From positions 744,001-808,000 of the forward strand of contig NZ_UPHU01000001.1 in assembly GCF_900566075.1 (NCBI RefSeq): a stretch of DNA of 64,000 bases. Reading direction: 5' to 3'. Under the pieces are notes generated by a model. That model did no database searches and was not told where the DNA came from. It saw only the letters and a list, made by a program, of their open reading frames with translations. The first letter of the stretch is position 1, and each line of letters opens with the position of its first letter. This stretch comes from Mycobacterium pseudokansasii (GTDB lineage Bacteria > Actinomycetota > Actinomycetes > Mycobacteriales > Mycobacteriaceae). Position numbers and translations under genes: made by a program. Positions 39,861 to 64,000 of this stretch are shown piece by piece.

Positions 39861-42614
39861 GTGCCGGAATCCACGGCTCATCACGGTTTGCCGGTGCATG
39901 AAGTGGTGCTGCTCGTGGAGACCGATCCGCACCGCGGGCTGTCCGGCGGCGAAGCGGCGGAGCGATTGCAGCGCTTCGGACCCAACACGTTGCCGATGGC
40001 TGCGCGGGGCAGCGTGCTGGTGCGCATTCTGCGGCAGTTTCACCATCCGCTCATCTACGTTCTGCTCGCCGCGGGGCTGATTACCGCGGGCCTGCGGGAA
40101 TACGTCGATTCCGCCGTGATCTTGGGCGTGGTTGTCGTCAACGCCATCGTGGGTTTCATCCCAAGAATCCAAGGCCTAGGCCGCGCTGGAGGGATTGCGG
40201 TCCATGGTGCGCACCCAGGCCAAGGTGGTCCGTGGCGGCCACGAGCGCACCGTGCCGTCGGCGGACCTGGTTCCCGGGGACCTCGTGCTGCTGGAGAGCG
40301 GCGACAAAGTGCCGGCCGACCTGCGGCTGGTGCGGGCAACCGAACTGCACGTCAACGAATCAGCGCTCACCGGAGAGTCGGTGCCGGTCCATAAGGACGC
40401 GGTCGCACTACCGGAGGCCACTCCGGTCGCCGATCGCCGCAATATGGTCTACTCCGGCACCCTGGTGACCGCGGGGCACGCCGCCGGCATCGCCGTCGCG
40501 ACCGGCGCCGAAACGGAACTGGGTGAAATTCATCGGCTGGTCGGTGCCGCGGAAACCCTGATGACGCCGCTGACCGCGAAGCTGGCCTGGTTCAGCAAGG
40601 TCCTGACCATCGCCATCCTGGCCCTGGCGGCGGTCACCTTCGCCGCGGGATTGCTGCGCCGCCAGGATGCCGTCGAAACCTTCACCGCGGCGATCGCCCT
40701 CGCGGTCGGGGCCATCCCCGAAGGCCTGCCGGCCGCCGTCACCATCACGCTGGCTATCGGTGTGGCCCGAATGGCCAAGCGCCGCGCGGTGATTCGCCGG
40801 CTGCCGGCGGTGGAGACGCTGGGCAGCACCACCGTCATCTGCAGCGACAAGACCGGAACGCTGACCGAGAACCAGATGACCGTCCAGGCGATCTGGACTC
40901 CCGACGGCATGGTCGAGGTGACCGGAACGGGCTATGCGCCCGACGGTGTCCTGCAGGATCGCGACGGCGCCCCTGTGTCGGTGGATGCCCATGCGGCACT
41001 GCGCTGGTCACTGATCGCCGGTGCGCGCTGCAACGACGCGGCACTGAGCCACGACGATGGGCACTGGAGTGTTATCGGTGACCCGACCGAGGGCGCGATG
41101 CTGGTCGTCGCGGCCAAGGCTGGGCTCGATGTGGAGCGCGCCGCCGCGGGCATGCCGCGGGTGGCGGCCATCCCGTTCAGCTCCGAGCGCCAGTACATGG
41201 CCACCCTGCATCGTGACGGCGCTGACCACGTGGTGCTGGCCAAGGGCGCGGTGGAGCGGATGCTCGAGTTGAGCAGCACGCAGCTGGGTGCCGACGGCGC
41301 GTTGCGTCCGCTGGACCGCGCGACGGTGTTGCGGGCCGCCGACCTACTCAGCGCCCGGGGTCTACGGGTACTGGCCACTGCCGTCCGCGCCGGAAGCGAG
41401 CCCGGCGAATTCGACGACGATGCGCTGCCGGGCACGTTGGCGTTCACCGGGCTGCAGGCAATGCTTGATCCTCCTCGGGCCGCCGCGTCATCCGCTGTCG
41501 CGGCCTGTCACACCGCCGGTATCGCGGTCAAGATGATCACCGGTGACCACGCCGGTACCGCTACAGCGATCGCGGCCAAGGTCGGATTGCTCGACGACGA
41601 GGAACCGACCGCGGGCGCGGTGCTCACCGGTGCTGAGTTGGCCGCCCTGAGTAGCGACGAGTATCCCGACGCGGTGGATCGGGCCACGCTATTCGCCCGG
41701 GTATCGCCGGAGCAGAAGCTGCGGCTCGTGCAGGCGTTGCAGGCCAGGGGTCACGTGGTCGCCATGACCGGTGACGGCGTCAACGACGCACCGGCCTTGC
41801 GGCAGGCCAACATCGGCGTCGCGATGGGACTCGGTGGCACCGAGGTCGCCAAGGACGCCGCCGACATGGTGTTGACCGACGACGACTTCGCCACCATCGA
41901 GGCCGCGGTCGAAGAGGGCCGCGGGGTCTTCGACAATCTGACGAAGTTCATCACCTGGACGCTGCCCACCAACATCGGTGAGGGACTGGTGATCCTGGTT
42001 GCGATCGCAGTCGGCGCCGCCCTGCCGATACTGCCGACCCAGATTCTGTGGATCACCATGACCACCGCGATCGCGCTCGGCCTCATGCTCGCCTTCGAGC
42101 CCAAGGAAGCCGGCATCATGACTCGTCCGCCGCGCGATCCCGACCAGCCGCTGCTGACCCGGGGCCTGGTGGCGCGGATTCTGCTGGTCGCCACCATGCT
42201 GGTCGCCACTGCCTGGTGGTTGTTCGAATGGGAAATCGGCAAGGGCGTCAGCGTCGAAGCGGCCCGGACCGCGGCGCTGAACCTCTTTGTGGTGGTTGAG
42301 GCGTTTTACCTGTTCAGCTGCCGGTCGCTGACCCACTCGGCCTTCCGATCGGCATCTTCTCCAACCGCTGGATCATCGTGGGCGTGACCGTGCAGGCCAT
42401 CGCTCAACTTGCCATCACCCATCTACCCGCGATGAACGCGGTGTTCGGTACCGCACCGATCGGGGCGCGCGCCTGGATGCGGATCTTCGCCGTCGCCACG
42501 GTCGTCACCCTCGTCGTGGCCGCCGACAAGCTGCTGCGCAGGAGCCGTGGCGCGCACCGCACAGGAGAACACGATCGCTCACGAGGCGCCGCGCCAACTG
42601 GCGGCGATCGCTGA
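39861..42614 (+). pseudogene. ctpF: CtpF-type P-type cation ATPase, broken by two frameshifts and a stop
   Basis: The DNA encodes a P2A-type cation ATPase of about 900 residues closely resembling CtpF (Rv1997), but not in one frame. The N-terminus (HHGLPVHEVVLLVETDPHRG) runs in frame from GTG 39861 to a C-run at 40160-40162, where one extra C breaks GFIQESKA. Three codons later TAG (40177-40179) replaces the Glu codon expected from CtpF. The central part is intact: ALTGESVPVH, the phosphorylation motif SDKTGTLTENQ, KMITGDHAGTA and AMTGDGVNDAPA. Near 42346 a base is missing, moving IGIFSNRWIIVGV and the last helices to another frame. Three lesions argue for true decay. Confidence 0.9.
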
Positions 42615-42714
42615 CAACTACTGCTAGCGTCCGGTAATGCGGCGGACGCAGAACCGAGCGCATCGCGTGGCTCGCACGAACACCGAGGGTGGGCCGGCCC
42701 GCCCGCCTTCGGGT

Positions 42715-44064
42715 ATGACTTCTCAACTGCGCCAAGGGCTGTCACAGCGTCAGCTCAACATGATCGCCATCGGTGGGGTGATCGGCGCCGGCTTATTCGT
42801 CGGCTCCGGCGTGGTGATCCAGGCGACCGGGCCCGCGGCCTTCCTGACCTACGCGATGTGCGGGGTGCTGATCGTGCTGGTGATGCGGATGCTCGGGGAG
42901 ATGGCTACCGCGAACCCGTCCACCGGTTCCTTTGCGGATTACGCGGCCAAGGCCCTGGGGGGCTGGGCCGGGTTTTCGGTGGGCTGGCTGTATTGGTACT
43001 TCTGGGTGATCGTCGTCGGTTTTGAGGCCGTGGCCGGCGGCAAGGTGCTGGCCTACTGGTTTCCTGCGCCGCTGTGGCTGTTGTCGTTATGTCTGATGGT
43101 GCTGATGACCGCGACCAACTTGTTCTCGGTGTCGTCGTTTGGTGAGTTCGAATTCTGGTTCGCCGGAATCAAAGTCGCGACCATCATGATCTTTCTCGGT
43201 GTCGGCACGGCTTTCGTGCTTGGGTTCTTGCCGGGCCATGATCTAGATTTCGCCAATCTCAGCGCGCATGGCGGGTTTTTCCCGAAGGGTGTCGGGGCGG
43301 TCTTCGCCGCCATCGTGGTGGTGATCTTTTCCATGGTCGGCGCCGAGGTGGTCACCATCGCCGCGGCCGAAAGTCGAGACCCGCAGCGCGCGATACACCG
43401 AGCCACCAACTCGGTGGTGGCGCGGATCGCGATCTTCTTCGTCGGCTCGGTATTTCTGGTGGTCGTGATCTTGCCTTGGGACTCAGTGGAACTCGGCGCC
43501 TCGCCGTACGTCGCGGCCCTCAAGCACATGGGTCTTGCCGGCGCGGACCAGATCATGAACGCGGTGGTGCTCACCGCGGTGCTCTCCTGTCTCAACTCCG
43601 GCCTGTATACCGCGTCGCGGATGCTGTTCGTGCTTGCCGACCGGCGCGAGGCGCCGGCACTTCTGGTCAGGGTCGGCCGGCGCGGGGTACCGCACGTCGC
43701 CATCCTGTCCTCGTCGGCGGTGGGGTTCGGTTGCGTCGTCATGGCGTGGCTCGCGCCCGGCACGGTGTTCCTCTTCCTGCTCAACTCCTCAGGTGCGGTG
43801 ATCTTGTTCGTCTACCTGCTCATCGCGCTGTCGCAAATTATGCTGCGCCGCCGCACACCCGCCGAGAAGCTGAGGGTGAAAATGTGGTTCTTCCCGGCGC
43901 TGTCGATCCTCACGGTCGCCGGAATCGTCGCCGTACTGGTGCAAATGGCGTTCGAACGCACCGCGCGCACCCAGCTGTGGCTCAGCCTGCTGTCCTGGTT
44001 GGTGGTGGTCGCGGTCTACTTCGTCGCCAAGAAGACGACGCGCAGACTCTTGCGCCGCGTGTGA
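42715..44064 (+). CDS. gabP: Amino acid permease, GabP type (Rv0522 homologue)
   Basis: This 449-residue APC-family permease has twelve membrane segments. The conserved first helix motif is QLNMIAIGGVIGAGLFVGSG, followed by TGPAAFLTYAMCGVLIVLVM, and the helix 6 region VVVIFSMVGAEVVTIAAAES. It imports gamma-aminobutyrate or related amino acids by proton symport by homology. ATG 42715 gives an N-terminus like M. tuberculosis GabP; in-frame upstream starts at 42637 and 42667 would add Arg-rich residues. The next gene starts within 12 bp or overlaps. Confidence 0.9.
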   Translation: MTSQLRQGLSQRQLNMIAIGGVIGAGLFVGSGVVIQATGPAAFLTYAMCGVLIVLVMRMLGEMATANPSTGSFADYAAKALGGWAGFSVGWLYWYFWVIVVGFEAVAGGKVLAYWFPAPLWLLSLCLMVLMTATNLFSVSSFGEFEFWFAGIKVATIMIFLGVGTAFVLGFLPGHDLDFANLSAHGGFFPKGVGAVFAAIVVVIFSMVGAEVVTIAAAESRDPQRAIHRATNSVVARIAIFFVGSVFLVVVILPWDSVELGASPYVAALKHMGLAGADQIMNAVVLTAVLSCLNSGLYTASRMLFVLADRREAPALLVRVGRRGVPHVAILSSSAVGFGCVVMAWLAPGTVFLFLLNSSGAVILFVYLLIALSQIMLRRRTPAEKLRVKMWFFPALSILTVAGIVAVLVQMAFERTARTQLWLSLLSWLVVVAVYFVAKKTTRRLLRRV

Positions 44065-44075
44065 TACTGCAACGC

Positions 44076-44984
44076 ATGAGGACGGCCGGCGTTCGTCGCG
44101 GAACGAAATTGTTGCTTTCTCCCGCCGCGGCGCCGGAGACCGGTGGTCTGATAGCTCTGGCCGGTCTGCGGCTGCTGGCCGGCTTGATCTGGCTCTACAA
44201 CGTGGTCTGGAAACTGCCACCTGATTTCGGGCAGCGCAGCAACAGCGGGTTGTACCACTTCACCCATCTGGCGATCGAACATCCGGTGTTCAAACCATTC
44301 AGCTGGGCCGTCGAGCACCTGGTGCTGCCGTACTTCACCGCCTTCGGTTGGGCGGTGCTGGTCGCCGAGTCCGCGTTGGCGGTGCTCCTGCTGACCGGTA
44401 CGGCGGTGCGGCTGGCTGCCCTGATCGGCATCGGGCAGTCACTGGCGATAGGCCTTTCCGTCGCCGAGTCCCCCGGGGAATGGCCGTGGGCGTATGCGAT
44501 GCTGCTCGGCATCCACGTCGTCTTGTTATTCGTGGCGTCGACCCGGTACGCCGCCGTCGACGCCGTGCGCGCGGCGAGCACCCCATCGGCAGTCCGGTCG
44601 GCCGCGCAGCGGTTGCTGGCTGGTTGGGCAACCGTGCTGTTGCTGATCGGGCTGATCGCCGTGTGGCGCGGTCTTGCCGGTAGTTGGCCCGCCTACGTCG
44701 GCATCCGGCCGCTGGAATTCTCACTTGGCCAATACAATCTGCGCGGCGCCGTGGTGCTGATCGCGGTCGCAGTGGCGATGCTGGCAGCGGCTAAGGTCGG
44801 CCAGCGCGTGATCGCGATCGCGGCCGCCGCGGTAGCAGCGCTGGCCGCGGCCTCCATCTATGTCCAAGTAGCCGGGACTTCGGTATGGCTCGGTGGAACC
44901 AACACCACCGCAGTAGTTTTCGTCTGCGCGGCGGTGGTGAGTCTGGCAGCGGGGCCAAGAATCGGATGGACGAAAGGGGCGTGA
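44076..44984 (+). CDS. DoxX/TQO-small-subunit-like membrane protein
   Basis: This 302-residue protein has about seven to eight hydrophobic helices. The first part (GLRLLAGLIWLYNVVWKLPPDF) looks like a DoxX/DoxD domain, the family that includes a thiosulfate:quinone oxidoreductase subunit. A second helical bundle fills the C-terminal half. ATG 44076 lies 11 bp after gabP; a GTG at 44061 would overlap its stop. The TGA stop at 44982-44984 shares one base with the ATG of the acyl-CoA-dehydrogenase-like gene, so they are translationally coupled. A redox role in the membrane is inferred from family and context. Confidence 0.75.
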   Translation: MRTAGVRRGTKLLLSPAAAPETGGLIALAGLRLLAGLIWLYNVVWKLPPDFGQRSNSGLYHFTHLAIEHPVFKPFSWAVEHLVLPYFTAFGWAVLVAESALAVLLLTGTAVRLAALIGIGQSLAIGLSVAESPGEWPWAYAMLLGIHVVLLFVASTRYAAVDAVRAASTPSAVRSAAQRLLAGWATVLLLIGLIAVWRGLAGSWPAYVGIRPLEFSLGQYNLRGAVVLIAVAVAMLAAAKVGQRVIAIAAAAVAALAAASIYVQVAGTSVWLGGTNTTAVVFVCAAVVSLAAGPRIGWTKGA

Positions 44985-46105
44985 TGACCGCATCGGGGGT
45001 TGTTCCGCAAGTCGTTGCCGTCGCTGCAGAACACGCCGAGCGAGTGGACGCCGACTGTTCGTTTCCGGTGGAGTCGGTGGATGCCCTGCGGGCCAACGGC
45101 CTCCTTGGTCTGGTGCTACCGGCCGATGTCGGTGGAATGGCTGCTAGCCCAAGGGAATTCACGCAGGTAGTGGCGCAACTATCGGCCGCCTGCGGATCGA
45201 CAGCCATGATCTATCTGATGCATGTGGCCGCGGCCGTCGCGGTCGCCGCAGCGCCCCCGCCGGGCCTGCCGGATCTGTTGGCGGACATGGCTTCTGGCAA
45301 GAAACTAGGCACGTTGGCGTTCAGCGAAAAGGGCTCTCGTTCGCACTTCTGGGCGCCGGTGTCCACCTCGACGGCCGACGGGGACGCCGTCGTCGTGCAG
45401 GCCGACAAGAGCTGGGTGACGTCGGCGGGGTTCGCCGACGTCTACGTCGTCTCCACCGGTTCGGTCAGTGGCGTCGCCGGAGACGTTGATCTCTACGCGG
45501 TTCCGGCGGATACGCCCGGCCTGCGGGTGACCGGCACCTTCACCGGGATGGGTCTGCGCGGCAATGCCTCGGCGCCGATGTCGGTCGACATTCGCGTGCC
45601 CGCCTCCAATCGCCTGGGCCCGCCGGGCGGCGGATTCGGCATGATGATGGAAACCGTCCTGCCGTGGTTCAACCTCGGAAATGCGGCCGTGTCACTGGGT
45701 TTGGCGACCGCCGCCACCAGCGCCGCGGTCAAGCACGTCACCAGCGCCCGGCTGGAACACCTCGGCGGGAGCCTGGCCGAGTTGCCGACGATCCGCGCCC
45801 AGATCGCTCGGATGGGCACCGGGCTGGCGGCGCAGGAGGCATATCTGGCGCAGGTCGCCGACCGGGTGAGTTCGCCCGACGACACCACACTGACACATGT
45901 GCTGGGAGTCAAAGCGTCGGTCAACGACGCCGCGCTGACCATCACCGAGTCGGCGATGCGGGTGTGTGGCGGTGCGGCGTTCTCCAAGCATCTGCCCATC
46001 GAACGGGCTTTCCGCGACGCTCGCGCCGGGGCGGTGATGGCACCGACCGCCGACGCACTGTACGACTTCTACGGCCGGGCCGTCACCGGGCTGCCGCTGT
46101 TCTAG
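44984..46105 (+). CDS. Acyl-CoA-dehydrogenase-fold flavoprotein
   Basis: This 373-residue protein has the three-domain ACAD fold: helical N-terminus (ESVDALRANGLLGLVLPADVG), beta domain (LGTLAFSEKGSRSHFWAP, ADKSWVTSAGFADVYVVSTG), then MGLRGNASAPMSVDI and a helical C-terminus (MRVCGGAAFSKHLPIERAFR). Members are either acyl-CoA dehydrogenases or FMN/FAD monooxygenases such as those for sulfur compounds (DszC/SfnB-like). The gene is squeezed between a DoxX-like and a substrate-binding protein gene, with no CoA ligase or hydratase. That context makes a non-beta-oxidation role more likely; this is inference. Confidence 0.85.
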   Translation: MTASGVVPQVVAVAAEHAERVDADCSFPVESVDALRANGLLGLVLPADVGGMAASPREFTQVVAQLSAACGSTAMIYLMHVAAAVAVAAAPPPGLPDLLADMASGKKLGTLAFSEKGSRSHFWAPVSTSTADGDAVVVQADKSWVTSAGFADVYVVSTGSVSGVAGDVDLYAVPADTPGLRVTGTFTGMGLRGNASAPMSVDIRVPASNRLGPPGGGFGMMMETVLPWFNLGNAAVSLGLATAATSAAVKHVTSARLEHLGGSLAELPTIRAQIARMGTGLAAQEAYLAQVADRVSSPDDTTLTHVLGVKASVNDAALTITESAMRVCGGAAFSKHLPIERAFRDARAGAVMAPTADALYDFYGRAVTGLPLF

Positions 46106-46113
46106 GGAGGGAT

Positions 46114-46938
46114 ATGTCAGCCGAACCGCTGGTTGTCGGGGCTGTGGCATACACGCCCAATGTGGTCCCGATCTGGGAGGGCATCCGAAGCTACTTTCGG
46201 GACTCCCAAAACCCGGATACCGACATGGATTTCGTGCTCTACTCTCACTACGGGCGGTTGGTCGACTCGCTGATTGCTGGTCACATCGACATCGCCTGGA
46301 ACACCAACCTCGCTTATGTGCGAACCGTGCTGCAGACGGGCGGGCACTGCACGGCCCTGGCCCAGCGGGACACCGACGTGGACTACACCACCGTCTTCGT
46401 GGCGCGCGCCGGCGGTGGACTGCACGGCGCGGGCGATATTGCCGGAAAACGTCTTGCGCTCGGGTCCGCCGACTCCGCGCACGCAGCGATCCTGCCGCTG
46501 TATTACCTGCGGCGCGCCGGCATCGCCGAGACGGCCTTGCACGTCATCCGATTCAACACCGACATCGGCAAACACGGCGACACCGGCCGCAGCGAACTGG
46601 ACGCGGTGGACGCCGTGCTGGCCGGGGAGGCCGATGTGGCGGCCATCGGGAGCTCGACGTGGGCGGCTATGGGTGCCGCAGAGCTGATGGGGGAGTCGCT
46701 GGCCGAAGTCTGGCGCACCGACGGCTACTGCCACTGCATGTTCACCGCGTTGGACACCTTGGCCGCCGAGCGGTACCAGCCGTGGCTGGACCGGTTGCTG
46801 GCGATGAACTGGGAGAACCCCGAGCACCGAAAGATATTGGAACTCGAGGGGTTACGACGCTGGGTGCCGCCGCATCTGGATGGATACAAGCCGTTGTTCG
46901 AGGCCGTCGAGGAGCAGGGTATCGACCCGCGATGGTAA
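46114..46938 (+). CDS. PhnD/SsuA-type substrate-binding protein without signal peptide
   Basis: This 274-residue periplasmic-binding-protein fold begins LVVGAVAYTPNVVPIWEGI and contains DFVLYSHYGRLVDSLIAGHI, DIAWNTNLAYVRTVL, AGKRLALGSADSAHAAILPL and AIGSSTWAAMGA, the pattern of phosphonate/aliphatic-sulfonate binding proteins. It lacks any export or lipoprotein signal and no ABC permease or ATPase is nearby. It may therefore bind its ligand inside the cell as an enzyme partner. A GGGAGG ribosome site precedes ATG 46114. Its end overlaps the radical SAM gene by 7 bp. Confidence 0.83.
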   Translation: MSAEPLVVGAVAYTPNVVPIWEGIRSYFRDSQNPDTDMDFVLYSHYGRLVDSLIAGHIDIAWNTNLAYVRTVLQTGGHCTALAQRDTDVDYTTVFVARAGGGLHGAGDIAGKRLALGSADSAHAAILPLYYLRRAGIAETALHVIRFNTDIGKHGDTGRSELDAVDAVLAGEADVAAIGSSTWAAMGAAELMGESLAEVWRTDGYCHCMFTALDTLAAERYQPWLDRLLAMNWENPEHRKILELEGLRRWVPPHLDGYKPLFEAVEEQGIDPRW

Positions 46939-47930
46939 TCCTGGACTTGATGCGCCAGGTGGGTGGTCTTGCACAGGGCGCCACCGTCGAGGTTGCCGTC
47001 AGCAGTCCCGGCGACCGAGAGCTTGCCGAAAAGTGGTGCGCCCGAACCGGAAACACTCTGGTGCGTGCGGACCTGGACGAGGCGGGAGCCGGTACCGTGA
47101 TAGTGCGGCGCGGTCATCCGCCCGATCCCGCCGAGGTGCTGGGCGCCGATCGGCTGCCCGGGGTCCGGCTGTGGCTCTATACCAATTTTCATTGCAATCT
47201 GTCTTGCGACTACTGCTGTGTCTCCTCGTCGCCGCAGGCTGCGCACCGCGAACTCGGGGCCGAACGAATCGGCCGCATTGTCGGTGAAGCCGCGCGCTGG
47301 GGGGTACGGGAGTTGTTCCTCACCGGCGGTGAGCCGTTCCTGCTGCCCGACATCGCCACGATCATCTCGACCTGTGTCGAGACGCTGCCCACCACCGTCC
47401 TGACTAACGGGATGGTGTTCAAAGGCCGGGCGCGCCGGGCGCTGGAATCCTTGCCCAGAGATGGGCTCGCCCTGCAGATCAGCCTGGACTCGGCGACGCC
47501 GGAGCTGCACGACTTGCATCGCGGCGCCGGGACGTGGGAAAAGGCGGTCGCCGGAATCCGTTTCGCGTTGTCGCTGGGCTTCCGGGTACGCGTGGCCGCG
47601 ACGGTCGCCGCCCCCGGGCCCGGCGAACTGGCCGCATTTCACGAGTTCCTCGACGCACTCGGCATCGCTGGCGAGGATCAGCTGGTGCGACCGATCGCCT
47701 TGGAAGGCGTTGCGTCCAAGGGGTTGTCGCTGCGCCGCGAATCGCTGGTTCCGGAGGTGACCGTCACCGCCGACGGCGTGTACTGGCATCCGGTAGCCGC
47801 CACCGACGAGCGGGCCCTGGTGTCGCGGACCATCGAACCGCTGACCCCGGCGCTGGACGCGGTAAGCCGGCTGTTCACCGAGCAGTGGGCGCGGGCCGCC
47901 GAGGCGGCCGCGCTGTTCCCGTGCGCGTAG
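46932..47930 (+). CDS. Radical SAM protein with TusA-like N-terminal domain
   Basis: This is a 332-residue protein. Residues 1-60 look like a TusA sulfur-carrier domain that starts just after the place of the CPxP motif (LMRQVGGLAQGATVEV, SSPGDRELAEKWCARTGNTL). The radical SAM core has Cys 88, 92 and 95 (FHCNLSCDYCC), then RELFLTGGEPFLLPD (GGEP at 132-135). No SPASM cluster motif is visible; the protein ends LFPCA. Radical SAM enzymes cleave SAM with a [4Fe-4S] cluster to start radical chemistry, often on peptides. It is the last gene of the doxX, ACAD, phnD-like, radical SAM operon and faces a Cys/His-rich mini-gene. The substrate is unknown. Confidence 0.87.
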   Translation: MVILDLMRQVGGLAQGATVEVAVSSPGDRELAEKWCARTGNTLVRADLDEAGAGTVIVRRGHPPDPAEVLGADRLPGVRLWLYTNFHCNLSCDYCCVSSSPQAAHRELGAERIGRIVGEAARWGVRELFLTGGEPFLLPDIATIISTCVETLPTTVLTNGMVFKGRARRALESLPRDGLALQISLDSATPELHDLHRGAGTWEKAVAGIRFALSLGFRVRVAATVAAPGPGELAAFHEFLDALGIAGEDQLVRPIALEGVASKGLSLRRESLVPEVTVTADGVYWHPVAATDERALVSRTIEPLTPALDAVSRLFTEQWARAAEAAALFPCA

Positions 47931-47952
47931 TGCGCGACGCTCAGCCGACCGA

Positions 47953-48225
47953 CTAATCGCGGCTGCTCATCGAAGGCGCCTCGATCTCGGAGTCCCACCC
48001 CGCGGCAATCACATCGTTCTCGTGGGCGCTGACTGATTCGGTACCCAATTTGCCTGCCTTGCAGCGACAACCGAAGGGGGCAATGGACTTGTCGCTGAAA
48101 GACGGGCACCACCCCCCTTACCCGTGGAGACACGTGTGGTTGAAGTGACAGTGGTAGTCGCATCCGACGGTGATGGTGCCGAATTCGGGGAGGGCCGCAG
48201 GCCGCGCAGAGGCGGTGGCAGTCAT
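47953..48225 (-). other. Cys/His-rich small frame with an in-frame TAA (35-residue peptide, or a disrupted 90-codon gene)
   Basis: On the minus strand ATG 48225, with GAGAAGGG five bases upstream, opens a frame whose residues 21-35 read GCDYHCHFNHTCLHG (Cys 22, 26 and 32; His 25, 27, 30 and 34). TAA follows at 48118-48120. The same frame then stays open for 54 more codons to TAG at 47953-47955, with protein-like composition (GGWCPSFSDK, PFGCRCKAGK, HENDVIAAGWDSE) and three more Cys. It is either a real 35-residue metal-binding or RiPP-like peptide, or a 90-codon gene broken by one stop. It lies 59 bp downstream of the panE-like gene on the same strand and converges on the radical SAM gene. 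Confidence 0.45.
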
Positions 48226-48284
48226 CGACGCCCTTCTCTCGGTCGCAGCCTCGTCGACGCACCAGGCGTATATCCGACCTCGGA

Positions 48285-49208
48285 TCAGCAGCCGCCCCAA
48301 TGCTTTTCCACCGACTTGGCCACCGCCGTCAAGGTCGCATTCACCGGCGTCGCCACCCCGACCCGGGCGCCGTACCGCGGGACCGCACCGTTGATGACGT
48401 CGATCTCGCTGATCCGGCGCGCTTCGTGGTCCAGCAGGGCCGACGGCTTCGCGTCGGGCATCGCCGCGCCGAAGGCCCGGACATGGGAGACGGGGTCAGT
48501 CACCGCCACCGCAATACCCGATGCCCGCGCTACCTCCCACGCCTCGGTCGCGGCCGCGCGGCTCACCGGGCCCATCTCCGGGTCGTCCATCACCTGGCCC
48601 ACCGTCATCGCGGTCAATGCGCACGGCGCGCTGTAGGCCACATTGCAGATCAGCTTCTCCCACTGCATGGCGGCGATGTCGGTGACCGCGGCGGCATCGA
48701 AACCGGCTTGGGTCCAGGCCCGGGCGATCGACTCGACGGTCTCGTGCGGCAGCGACGCATAAGCCCCGAACCGCATGGCGCGCATGGCGTTGTGGCGCAC
48801 GTGCCCGGGTGCGATCCGCGCCGCGCCGAAGCCGCTGGCGATCCCGACCGCGACCCGCCGGTCTCCGACGATACCGGCGACGGTCTCGGCCGACCCCAGA
48901 CCGTTCTGGATGGTCAGGACCGCGGTAGCGGCGCCCAGCATCGGAAGCGCCTGCCGCGCAGCGGTTTCCACATCAGCGGCCTTGACGGCCAGCACAATCA
49001 GGTCCATCGCCTCGGCGGGGGCGGCGGTGGCGGCCCGCAGCGGCACCAGCTGCTCATAACCGGGTCCGGTGACCCGCAGCCCGTGTCGGGCGATCTGCTC
49101 GACGCCGGCCCGCTGCCGATCGATGACCACGACGTCATTGCCCGCGGCGGTCAGCTTGGCTGCATAGATGGAACCCATTGCGCCGCAGCCTATTATCGCG
49201 ATTTTCAT
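48285..49208 (-). CDS. 2-dehydropantoate 2-reductase family protein (PanE/ApbA-like)
   Basis: This 307-residue protein starts KIAIIGCGAMGSIYAAKLTA (NADPH fold) and has the DLIVLAVKAADVETAARQAL strand, TIQNGLGSAETVAGIVGD and the C-terminal WEKLICNVAYSAPCALTAM with the Lys and Asn of the active-site helix. The family reduces ketopantoate or other 2-oxo acids. ATG 49208 is decided by the conserved N-terminus. It follows a TarD-like dehydratase by 11 bp. Since tartrate dehydratase makes a 2-oxo acid (oxaloacetate), a reductase for that type of product is a fair guess and pantothenate synthesis is not proven. Confidence 0.85.
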   Translation of the reverse strand: MKIAIIGCGAMGSIYAAKLTAAGNDVVVIDRQRAGVEQIARHGLRVTGPGYEQLVPLRAATAAPAEAMDLIVLAVKAADVETAARQALPMLGAATAVLTIQNGLGSAETVAGIVGDRRVAVGIASGFGAARIAPGHVRHNAMRAMRFGAYASLPHETVESIARAWTQAGFDAAAVTDIAAMQWEKLICNVAYSAPCALTAMTVGQVMDDPEMGPVSRAAATEAWEVARASGIAVAVTDPVSHVRAFGAAMPDAKPSALLDHEARRISEIDVINGAVPRYGARVGVATPVNATLTAVAKSVEKHWGGC

Positions 49209-49219
49209 CCGGGGTGCTC

Positions 49220-50377
49220 CTATGCCGTCAGCTCGGTGATCAGGTCGGCTAAGCCGGGTTTCTGCTCGAGCCCGAAGCCCGGCGCGTCCGTCGGCGAGAT
49301 CCGGCCCTCGGTTACCGCGCACTCGTCGGGATATCCGCCGAAGGGCTGGAAAACTCCCGGGTAGGACTCGCAACCGCCCAGCCCCAGGGCCGCCGCGATG
49401 TGCAGGTTGATCAGGTGCCCGCCGTGCGGGAAGGCGAACCTCCGATCGAATCCGTGCGCCTCGATCACCTGGAGCATCCGCGCATACTCACCCAGCCCGT
49501 AGCTCAGGCCGGCGTCCATCTGGAAGACGTCGCGGCCGGGCCGCATGCCGCCGTAGCGGACCAGGTTGGTCACGTCGGGCACCGAGAACAGGTTTTCACC
49601 GGTGGCTATCGCGCCGTCGTAGTAGGCAGTCACCTCGCGGTTCAGTTCGAAATCGAGTGGATCACCGGGCTCTTCGTACCAGCGCAGGCCGTAAGGCGCC
49701 AGCGCGGTCGCCCAGTGCGTCGCGGCGGACCGGTCGAACCGGCCGTTCGCGTCGACCGCGATGCGTTCGGCGCCCACGACGTCGATCACCGCCTCGATGC
49801 GGGCGAGGTCGTCGGGCAACGCGGCGCCGCCGATCTTCATCTTGACCGCGTCATAGCCCTGATCGAGATAGCCGCGCATCTCGTCGCGCAACCCGGCCAG
49901 GCCGCGTCCCGGGTGGTAGTAGCCGCCGGCGGCATACACCGCGACCGCGGGCGCCGGGGTTCGCCCGAAATGACGTGCGATGGTCGCGTAGGCGGGTTCG
50001 TCGTCGAGTTTGGCGGTAAGGTCCCAGCACGCCAGTTCCAGGGCGGCGGCCGCGGCCGCCCGGTCGCCGTGGCCGCCCGGCTTCTCGTCGGTCAGCGCAG
50101 CTGCCAAGACGGCGGCGGGGTCGATCCGGCCGCATTGATCCAGGAGGGCGTCCGGGGCTGCCGACATCAGGCGGGGGGTCATCCGGTCACGCAGGATCCC
50201 GCTCTGGGCGAATCGCCCGATCGAGTTGAATGCCACCCCGGTGGCGGGCTTTCCGTGCCGGACCACGTCGGTGACCACTGCCACCAGCGACACCGTGTGG
50301 TGGGCGAAGTTGACGACGGCGTTGGCGGGGCCTCCGTGCAGTGCGACCGGGTGTTCCCGGACCGCGGTGAGCCGCAT
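49220..50377 (-). CDS. tarD: Enolase-superfamily dehydratase, D(-)-tartrate dehydratase (TarD) type
   Basis: This 385-residue protein has the capping domain then a beta-barrel with the expected acid/base and metal residues. The Lys motif VKMKIGG is at 178-184 and VDANGRFD carries metal ligand Asp 209. WYEEPGDPLDFEL (Glu 235) and AIATGENLFSV (Glu 261) supply the other ligands, and FPHGGHLINLHIAAA has the His near 318-321. The blocks AAGGYYHPG, RYGGMRPGRDVFQMD and YPGVFQPFGGYPDE are those I know from D-tartrate dehydratase. It would convert D-tartrate to oxaloacetate. It forms an operon with the PanE-like gene; this pair is not in the M. tuberculosis order I recall. Confidence 0.85.
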   Translation of the reverse strand: MRLTAVREHPVALHGGPANAVVNFAHHTVSLVAVVTDVVRHGKPATGVAFNSIGRFAQSGILRDRMTPRLMSAAPDALLDQCGRIDPAAVLAAALTDEKPGGHGDRAAAAAALELACWDLTAKLDDEPAYATIARHFGRTPAPAVAVYAAGGYYHPGRGLAGLRDEMRGYLDQGYDAVKMKIGGAALPDDLARIEAVIDVVGAERIAVDANGRFDRSAATHWATALAPYGLRWYEEPGDPLDFELNREVTAYYDGAIATGENLFSVPDVTNLVRYGGMRPGRDVFQMDAGLSYGLGEYARMLQVIEAHGFDRRFAFPHGGHLINLHIAAALGLGGCESYPGVFQPFGGYPDECAVTEGRISPTDAPGFGLEQKPGLADLITELTA

Positions 50378-63302: not shown

Positions 63303-64000
63303 ATGGACCACAATGATCGGATGCTCGCAGTGATCGGCGGTACCGGTTTCTACACCTTCTTCGGTCCCGATGCGCGCGCCGTCGAGCCGGATACCCCGTA
63401 CGGTCAGCCCAGCGGCCCGATCACGATAGGCACCATCGCAGGCCACGACGTCGCATTCCTGCCGCGGCACGGTGTCCACCACCAGTACTCGGCGCACACC
63501 GTGCCCTACCGGGCCAACATGTGGGCGCTGCGCGCCCTCGGCGTGCGACGGGTGTTCGCCCCCTGCGCCGTGGGTAGCCTCACTCCCCGGCTCGGTCCCG
63601 GCGCGGTGGTGGTGCCAGATCAGCTGGTCGATCGCACCCGGAGCCGGGCCGACACTTACTTCGATTCCGGCGGTGTGCACGCCACCTTCGCCGATCCGTA
63701 CTGTCCGACGCTGCGCGGCGCGGTCACCGGGTTACCCGATGTGGTCGACGGCGGCACCCTGGTGGTGATCCAGGGGCCGCGCTTTTCCACCCGCGCGGAA
63801 AGCCAGTGGTTTGCCGCCGCTGGGTTCAACCTGGTCAACATGACCGGCTACCCGGAGGCTGTCCTCGCCAGAGAGCTTGAATTATGCTATGCAGCAATAG
63901 CTTTGGTGACGGATGTCGATGCAGGTGTCGATGTCGGGGAGGGGGTGACGGCGGCCGACGTGTTCGCCAGCTTCGGCGAGAACATCGAGGTGCTCAAGCA
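63303..64000 (+). CDS. mtnP: S-methyl-5'-thioadenosine phosphorylase family (MtnP/Pnp, Rv0535 homologue), partial
   Basis: The gene runs off the right edge after about 232 residues. It begins [20 protein letters not shown] and has the family blocks [59 protein letters not shown], and [20 protein letters not shown] with [19 protein letters not shown]. It cleaves methylthioadenosine with phosphate, returning adenine and methylthioribose-1-phosphate. ATG 63303 is used; a second in-frame ATG lies six codons later. It is the first gene to the right of menA, in the opposite direction. Confidence 0.93.

What the first reader, a model, noticed from the sequence alone, without database searches (positions are those of the whole stretch)
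44076..47930. Four-gene operon DoxX-like, ACAD-like, signal-less PhnD-like and TusA/radical-SAM: candidate undescribed pathway
Genes overlap by 1 and 7 bp or are 8 bp apart, so they are one translational unit behind gabP. The parts are odd together: a DoxX/TQO-type membrane protein, a flavin enzyme of the acyl-CoA dehydrogenase fold without beta-oxidation partners, a binding protein with no export signal and no ABC transporter, and a radical SAM enzyme. DoxX, TusA and the DszC/SfnB-like branch of ACADs all have sulfur-linked members. A cofactor or sulfur-compound pathway is therefore one inference; peptide modification is another.
Basis: partly seen in the sequence, partly recalled or inferred. 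Interest (0 to 1): 0.7.

Follow-up and report, generated by a model that had tools for sequence, protein, structure and literature searches.

The report
Radical-SAM cassette of thio-pentose glycan pathway
Four tightly packed genes of unknown function, the same set as a long-known but unexplained tuberculosis-family operon, repeatedly sit beside the genes that put a rare sulphur-containing sugar on the cell surface of mycobacteria and related genes in other actinobacteria, which gives the set a first concrete, testable job.

Summary
In detail: four genes at window 44076-47930 overlap by 1 and 7 bp or lie 8 bp apart. They match the NCBIfam families Rv1678_C, Rv1679_FadE16, SBP_like_Rv1680 and radical_Rv1681 above cut-off, so the genes are known but their function is not. 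The set is a real unit: in 80 loci fetched with the radical SAM protein, the binding-protein-like gene is present in 80, the flavoprotein in 75 and DoxX in 71. The small Cys-rich ORF has no counterpart there.
New here: methylthioxylose-type sugar genes (MtxS-like GT2, DUF2064, MtxT-like GT-C, MTA phosphorylase) lie within 9 kb in 21 of 80 loci (12 of 34 genus-level groups), in different orders. The sets are contiguous even in a Dormiibacterota MAG and on a Miltoncostaea plasmid. In the window's own genome mtxT is 24 kb away.
Best explanation: a module that makes or tailors a 5-substituted pentofuranose which MTX-type machinery attaches to surface glycans. The chemistry is inferred. The flavoprotein lacks the acyl-CoA dehydrogenase Glu; the PhnD-fold protein is cytosolic. 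MTX is probably made without the cassette in some species, so an essential MTX step is unlikely.

The parts
44076..44984 (+). DoxX/DoxD-like membrane protein fused to a C-terminal membrane part (Rv1678-like); in many other genomes two separate ORFs
   Evidence: (NF049986 79.6 bits, cut-off 50)
44984..46105 (+). Acyl-CoA-dehydrogenase-fold flavoprotein without the catalytic Glu (Rv1679/FadE16-like)
   Evidence: (NF049984 632 bits, cut-off 600)
46114..46938 (+). PhnD/PtxB-fold binding-protein-like protein without signal peptide (Rv1680-like)
   Evidence: (NF049985 488 bits, cut-off 400)
46932..47930 (+). Radical SAM protein with a degenerate TusA-like N-terminus and an invariant Cys next to the C-terminus (Rv1681-like)
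   Evidence: (NF049973 532 bits, cut-off 380)
63303..64000 (+). Linked, not in the operon: start of a phosphorylase gene of the methylthioadenosine-phosphorylase type (runs past the window end), first gene of the MTX-type region that continues to the mtxT-like gene at G000:C1:815563-816915

Best explanation
The cassette is a biosynthetic module for a 5-substituted (thio)pentofuranose that MTX-type machinery (MTA phosphorylase, TIGR04282/DUF2064 nucleotidyltransferase-like protein, SDR epimerase, MtxS-like polyprenyl-phosphate sugar synthase, a GT-C transferase such as MtxT) puts on cell-surface glycans. Shown: the genes form one conserved unit; the unit recurs beside that machinery in distant lineages; the flavoprotein lacks the acyl-CoA-dehydrogenase base; the PhnD-fold protein has no export signal. 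Inferred: the radical SAM enzyme works in the cytosol on a nucleoside or nucleotide pentose (either adding the 5'-deoxyadenosyl group to an acceptor, as ArsS and HpnH do, recalled, or tailoring a furanose, as AbmM does); the PhnD-fold protein is its dedicated partner; and the flavoprotein and DoxX protein carry out a quinone-coupled redox or oxygenation step. It modifies or adds to the methylthioxylose pathway rather than being required for it.
For: Four equivalogs above curated cut-offs. Gene order conserved in 80 loci. At least one of GT2, DUF2064, MtxT-like or MTAP in 21 of 80 loci (18 of the 55 that are at least 18 kb long) and 12 of 34 genus-level groups; DUF2064 in 19 of 80 against an arithmetic expectation of about 0.5% per locus. 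Contiguous MTAP-GT2-DUF2064-GT-C-ACAD-SBP-rSAM-DoxX in Ca. Aeolococcus, phylum Dormiibacterota (L074), and DoxX-CMD-rSAM-GT2-DUF2064-ACAD-SBP in Miltoncostaea oceani (L127). mtxT-like gene 24 kb away in the window's genome, and intact in 14 of 14 cassette-positive mycobacteria against 21 of 36 cassette-negative ones that I chose from 184 (Fisher p 0.0025, not corrected for kinship). DUF2064 in 48 of 50 cassette-positive genomes. Divergent rSAM relatives are also near TIGR04282/TIGR04283 genes. The MTX donor derives from MTA, and MtxS/MtxT are Rv0539/Rv0541c (PMC11127046 and PMC8780516, passages). Nearest solved rSAMs include BlsE and AbmM besides peptide maturases.
Against: 59 of 80 loci show no such gene in the DNA held (37 of those are at least 18 kb long). 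Saccharomonospora genomes G424 and G437 carry the cassette but no DUF2064 or MtxT-like gene. MtxT-like matches in only 23 of 50 cassette-positive genomes, one of them in pieces; some others have GT87 or DUF2079 GT-C genes beside the set. DUF2064 also occurs in 7 of 11 same-class controls without cassette, all 7 of one family, f3, and 0 of the 4 others. The MTX-specific antibody S4-20 reacts with M. gordonae and M. intracellulare (PMC6258851 table passage), species not among the named Rv1681 homologues (top 120 listed, many unnamed), so the cassette is probably not needed for MTX. No chemistry was shown.
Confidence: 0.6

Rival explanations
1. The cassette performs the ribo-to-xylo (C3) inversion that turns methylthioribose into methylthioxylose, with the radical SAM enzyme as a thiol-dependent epimerase using its conserved Cys next to the C-terminus.
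For: C331 is invariant in 46 of 46 aligned homologues and kept in the divergent relatives L034, L035 and L037; the radical SAM epimerase EpeE is among the fold matches; the cassette is linked to MTX-type genes.
Against: An SDR epimerase gene is already beside the set in 13 of 80 loci, and an SDR is proposed to make xylofuranose in Citrobacter (PMC11127046 passage). S4-20-positive M. gordonae and M. intracellulare do not appear among named homologues. L038-L040 lack the Cys.
Confidence: 0.12
2. The cassette oxidises the sulfur of methylthioxylose or a related thioether; the ACAD-fold protein is a DszC-like S-monooxygenase.
For: The catalytic Glu position is Ala353 (73 of 73) followed by Pro354 (73 of 73); H80 73 of 73, H121 72 of 73, S147 70 of 73. 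An oxidised sugar (MSX) is named in PMC6258851 (figure legend passage).
Against: It does not explain the radical SAM or PhnD-fold partners; three loci have the cassette with no ACAD gene beside SBP (L053, L089, L093); SfnB and DszC models score far below cut-off (84.9 against 430.9 and 43.2 against 850 bits).
Confidence: 0.1
3. The cassette is an independent redox or sulfur/selenium pathway that merely travels with the MTX-type genes in a conserved menaquinone/cytochrome-c region.
For: TlpA-like and CcdA-like genes also recur, in 11 loci each, 6 of each Mycobacterium; selA-selB-selD flank the Miltoncostaea locus; the cassette exists without MTX-type genes in two Saccharomonospora genomes.
Against: Contiguous gene sets with GT2/DUF2064/GT-C in unrelated orders, with no men genes seen by eye in L074, L106 or L127.
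Confidence: 0.15
4. A RiPP or peptide-modification system.
For: Fold and sequence similarity of the rSAM to SkfB, SuiB and EpeE/YydG.
Against: No conserved precursor found: the window's 35-aa Cys-rich ORF has no counterpart at the 80 loci; no SPASM match in Pfam.
Confidence: 0.03

Closest known systems
Rv1678-Rv1681 families (FadE16, MoeX region) of NCBIfam
   Same: All four proteins score above the curated cut-offs.
   Different: Those models give no function; the link to MTX-type genes and the distribution are added here. The name MoeX is recalled.
Methylthioxylose (MTX) capping pathway, MtxS/MtxT
   Same: Shares gene neighbourhood with the cassette in 21 of 80 loci (MTAP, DUF2064, GT2 or MtxT-like).
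   Different: MTX is described from a five-gene cluster (PMC5911930 passage); the passages read do not mention this cassette; cassette-negative species probably make MTX.
Arsenosugar pathway (ArsS with TIGR04282/TIGR04283)
   Same: Radical SAM plus the same glycosyltransferase-like families near divergent Rv1681 relatives; the product class is also a 5-heteroatom-5-deoxy-pentofuranoside (recalled).
   Different: The rSAM is not ArsS (TIGR04167 43.5 bits against cut-off 300).
Futalosine menaquinone pathway (MqnA/MqnD SBP-fold enzymes, MqnE rSAM, nucleosidase)
   Same: Recalled logic: cytosolic SBP-fold protein plus radical SAM plus adenosine-type phosphorylase or nucleosidase.
   Different: Our SBP matches PhnD (PF12974), with no Mqn family hit at E<=1; not a member.
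AbmM (albomycin thiofuranose) and BlsE
   Same: Among the nearest solved radical SAM enzymes by sequence (BlsE E 5e-10; 8wm2, AbmM, E 1e-7); AbmM makes a thiofuranose core (PMC12691670 passage).
   Different: Distant, over the radical SAM core only; no shared accessory genes were tested.

Membership tests
Rv1678-Rv1681 NCBIfam families | score above curated cut-off | tested here: met
   79.6/50, 632/600, 488/400, 532/380 bits
Acyl-CoA dehydrogenase (beta-oxidation) | catalytic Glu in the YEGT motif | tested here: not met
   Ala in its place in 73 of 73 aligned sequences; also MAPT in L127
ABC-transporter periplasmic binding protein | PhnD-type fold | tested here: met
   PF12974 E 4e-32; AF2 model matches 7s6g, E 4e-24
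ABC-transporter periplasmic binding protein | signal peptide | tested here: not met
   predicted start is 6-15 residues before the Y(T/S)PN motif of the first strand region in 72 of 77 sequences; 5 lack the motif; the upstream ACAD gene ends at most 72 nt away
TusA sulfur carrier | Pfam cut-off and the CPxP motif (motif recalled) | tested here: not met
   18.7 bits against 28.6, match starts at profile position 14; no CPxP in P0004
Radical SAM | CxxxCxxC cluster motif | tested here: met
   C88, C92, C95 invariant
RiPP system | conserved precursor peptide | tested here: not met
   (the noted 35-aa ORF only)
Arsenosugar system | ArsS above cut-off | tested here: not met
   43.5 against 300 bits
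Arsenosugar system | TIGR04282/TIGR04283 beside the rSAM | tested here: inconclusive
   met only for divergent relatives: TIGR04283 near L034, L036, L037 (over cut-off in 2 of 3), TIGR04282 over cut-off in L036. The DUF2064 protein of L055, beside a true cassette, scores 117.4 against 134 for TIGR04282, and its GT2 45.5 against 182 for TIGR04283
MTX pathway | MtxS/MtxT/MTAP-type genes co-located | tested here: met
   21 of 80 loci, own genome within 24 kb
MTX pathway | cassette required for the MTX residue | tested here: inconclusive
   S4-20-positive species not seen among named homologues, argues against
DoxX/TQO | thiosulfate:quinone oxidoreductase activity | not testable with these tools
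   only DoxD/DoxX profile matches of proteins from other loci

The most novel reading that the evidence does not exclude
The cassette defines a third route to 5-heteroatom-5-deoxy-pentofuranosides, beside arsenosugars and methylthioxylose: the Rv1681-type radical SAM enzyme, fed by a cytosolic PhnD-fold partner, forms a new 5'-substituted adenosine or nucleotide sugar, and MTX-type enzymes then place an as yet unseen sugar on the surface glycans of cassette-bearing mycobacteria and many other actinobacteria.
Probability: 0.2. Interest if true: 0.85.

Novelty: new variant of a known kind. Interest (0 to 1): 0.6.

Why it matters
The Rv1678-Rv1681 families carry names but no role. Tying them to the machinery for the rare sulfur sugar that a TB urine LAM test targets (PMC6258851) gives a specific, testable hypothesis about mycobacterial envelope chemistry. 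It also suggests that MTX-like sugars, whose existence outside lipoarabinomannan was called unclear (PMC11127046 passage), may be widespread in actinobacteria.

Tried and rejected
Small Cys-rich ORF as RiPP precursor: rejected, no counterpart at the 80 loci and not in the aligned downstream regions of seven close relatives. TusA sulfur-carrier reading: rejected as below cut-off and without the motif. Auxiliary Fe-S cluster from C36/C96/C148/C331: considered, but C96 and C148 are absent from all seven divergent relatives aligned and C36 is kept in only one. Riboswitch or RNA element: none in 42000-50000 at gathering thresholds. MTX epimerase role: kept only as a rival because of the S4-20 species data. 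L041 was dropped as a family member because its aligned residues do not fit. No empirical random-locus control was run; the expectation is arithmetic from an assumed mean genome of 5.5 Mb and 1.5 DUF2064 copies per genome.
Full report
What is there. They score above the curated cut-offs of four NCBIfam models: NF049986 memb_Rv1678_C, NF049984 Rv1679_FadE16, NF049985 SBP_like_Rv1680 and NF049973 radical_Rv1681. The gene set is therefore one known from M. tuberculosis gene numbering. With P0004 as query the own genome shows one full match and two partial ones at 32-34% identity.

It is a unit. A genome-contig scan with 22 aligned homologues gave 80 loci, the best of 260 confirmed. The SBP-like gene is present beside the rSAM in 80 of 80, the ACAD-like gene in 75 of 80 by blastp (74 by HMM), and DoxX in 71 of 80 by HMM (the clustering gave 72 for DoxX). 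Of the five loci without ACAD by blastp, L109 and L113 are cut by the contig start and L053, L089 and L093 lack it beside the SBP gene. DoxX is usually upstream, but downstream of the rSAM in several Arthrobacter, Cryobacterium and related loci. In many genomes the window's fused DoxX protein is two ORFs. In mycobacteria the cassette is patchy: NF049973 over cut-off in 14 of 198 same-genus genomes. One copy lies on a Mycolicibacterium vanbaalenii plasmid.

What the parts look like. The ACAD-like protein has MAPT where acyl-CoA dehydrogenases have YEGT; the catalytic Glu position is Ala in 73 of 73 aligned sequences. The PhnD-like protein is predicted as a PhnD/PtxB/ArrX fold (pLDDT 89; best match 7s6g, E 4e-24) and starts directly at the mature fold, with no signal peptide in the loci examined. 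The rSAM has the CxxxCxxC motif, an invariant penultimate Cys, a degenerate TusA-like N-terminus and no SPASM match. Its nearest solved relatives by sequence are BlsE, SkfB and AbmM (8wm2 is named AbmM).

The new link. All-against-all clustering of predicted neighbours showed that the largest recurrent non-core group is a GT2/DUF2064 family in 21 of 80 loci; an epimerase, a two-component pair, a membrane transferase and an MTA phosphorylase also recur. In NCBIfam the L055 representatives are MTAP (over cut-off), a TIGR04282-like protein (117 bits, below its 134 cut-off) and a GT2 whose best match is a dolichyl-phosphate hexose transferase model (87 bits, below cut-off). Close homologues of the membrane protein are named methylthioxylose transferase by JGI and, once, NCBI. 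A figure legend in PMC8780516 names MtxT (Rv0541c) and MtxS (Rv0539); PMC11127046 says the MTX donor derives from methylthioadenosine (passages). With score thresholds, at least one of GT2, DUF2064, MtxT-like or MTAP is in 21 of 80 loci and 12 of 34 genus-level groups; of the 55 loci at least 18 kb long, 18. DUF2064 alone is in 19 of 80 against about 0.5% expected per locus (arithmetic null, not empirical). Orders differ. In M. pyrenivorans (L055) the cassette sits between MTAP-epimerase and GT2-DUF2064-MtxT, with menA and menE (by eye) outside. In Agromyces (L106, L108) GT2-DUF2064-MtxT run straight into the cassette on one strand. In Glycomyces (L087, L103) MtxT-epimerase do so, with GT2-DUF2064 and MTAP divergent. 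In Candidatus Aeolococcus (L074; phylum Dormiibacterota) MTAP-GT2-DUF2064-GT-C-ACAD-SBP-rSAM-DoxX are contiguous. On a Miltoncostaea oceani plasmid (class Thermoleophilia) DoxX-CMD-rSAM-GT2-DUF2064-ACAD-SBP is contiguous, with ACAD and SBP 45% and 41% identical to the window's.

In the window's own genome the mtxT-like gene is at C1:815566-816909, about 24 kb from the cassette, and the MTAP gene begins inside the window at 63303. Of 14 cassette-positive mycobacteria all have an intact mtxT-like gene, 8 of them about 19-26 kb from the rSAM, the other 6 farther away or on another contig. Of 36 cassette-negative ones, which I chose from 184, 21 have it, 12 have none and 3 have broken copies. The Fisher p of 0.0025 ignores kinship, and the shared position may be a single inherited event.

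More distant rSAM relatives from the same phylum keep the association. L034, L036 and L037 are rSAM proteins with a metallophosphoesterase-like N-terminal region (Pfam tested on L036 only; the others by similar N-termini), near TIGR04283 genes and, in L036, a TIGR04282 gene. L040 has epimerase, DUF2064, GT2 and an MtxT-labelled ORF; L038-L040 carry a small gene upstream of the rSAM in place of ACAD and SBP, a CMD/AhpD-family protein by profile in L039 and only weakly so in L040.

Against. Most loci (59 of 80) show no MTX-type gene in the DNA held. Two Saccharomonospora genomes with the cassette have neither DUF2064 nor an MtxT-like gene. MtxT-like matches are found in 23 of 50 cassette-positive genomes, one of them in pieces (50 of the 80 loci were searched). 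DUF2064 is in 48 of the same 50 but also in 7 of 11 same-class controls, all 7 of one family. The MTX antibody S4-20 gives signal with M. gordonae (25) and M. intracellulare (129) in PMC6258851 Table 1 (passage); neither appears among the named homologues of the rSAM (top 120 of 5676 listed, many without names). PMC5911930 mentions a five-gene MTX cluster present in M. smegmatis (passage). So the cassette is probably not an essential MTX step.

Mechanism. The best reading is a module that makes or tailors a 5-substituted pentofuranose delivered by MTX-type enzymes. Two chemistries fit: adenosyl-radical addition followed by phosphorolysis (the logic of ArsS and HpnH, recalled), or tailoring of a furanose (AbmM swaps sulfur for oxygen; PMC12691670 passage). 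The PhnD-fold protein would be a cytosolic partner or enzyme; SBP-fold enzymes MqnA/MqnD are recalled precedents, not tested. The flavoprotein and DoxX would supply a redox or oxygenation step. None of these steps is shown.

Literature. No paper in the searched library holds two of Rv1678-Rv1681. Fourteen hold Rv1681, and their titles are dominated by biomarker and antigen work (listing and abstract starts only). One search found one paper with FadE16 and DsbF (a drug-response transcriptome, listing only). One search listed 40 of 316 papers, nearly all matching other words that begin with 'moex'. One search found one paper, on Rv0536/galE3 (listing only). None of these listings links the cassette to methylthioxylose. 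The primary MTX biosynthesis paper (PMC5357196) is not held.

Noticed in passing
window 48118-48225, minus strand: 35-aa Cys/His-rich ORF beside the rSAM; no counterpart found at the 80 related loci, so probably not part of the system.
   Followed up: yes
L034 6893-8566; L036 6227-7924; L037 1883-3709: Rv1681-like radical SAM domains behind a metallophosphoesterase-like N-terminal region (Pfam tested on L036 only), near arsenosugar-type glycosyltransferases; a possible separate sugar pathway.
   Followed up: partly
L127 1727-16050 (Miltoncostaea oceani plasmid): Full divergent cassette with CMD, GT2 and DUF2064 next to selA, selB and selD; a second radical SAM/SPASM gene follows.
   Followed up: partly
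L126 2521-14041 (Mycolicibacterium vanbaalenii plasmid): Plasmid-borne cassette flanked by CMD, deiodinase-like, glutaredoxin, MFS, CcdA and disulfide oxidoreductase genes, and a TrsS/Tes-like radical SAM (below both cut-offs) with a methyltransferase.
   Followed up: partly
NZ_CP021356.1 70200-70817 (Rhodococcus oxybenzonivorans plasmid): Partial match to the rSAM protein (residues 127-332 only) under a helix-turn-helix annotation; perhaps a truncated copy.
   Followed up: no
L053, L058, L073, L089, L093, L036, L126: A similar MFS transporter gene recurs beside the cassette (related by clustering in the first five, by inspection in the last two).
   Followed up: no
L094 11771-14130: Two genes that look like EgtB/EgtD (ergothioneine type, by eye) lie inside the MTX-type gene set.
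   Followed up: no
G268, G308, G336 (mtxT-like locus); G433: mtxT-like gene broken in three mycobacterial genomes and found in two pieces in one Saccharomonospora genome.
   Followed up: no
L087 412-1716; L103 424-1722: GT2 and DUF2064 fused in one ORF in Glycomyces, supporting a joint function.
   Followed up: partly
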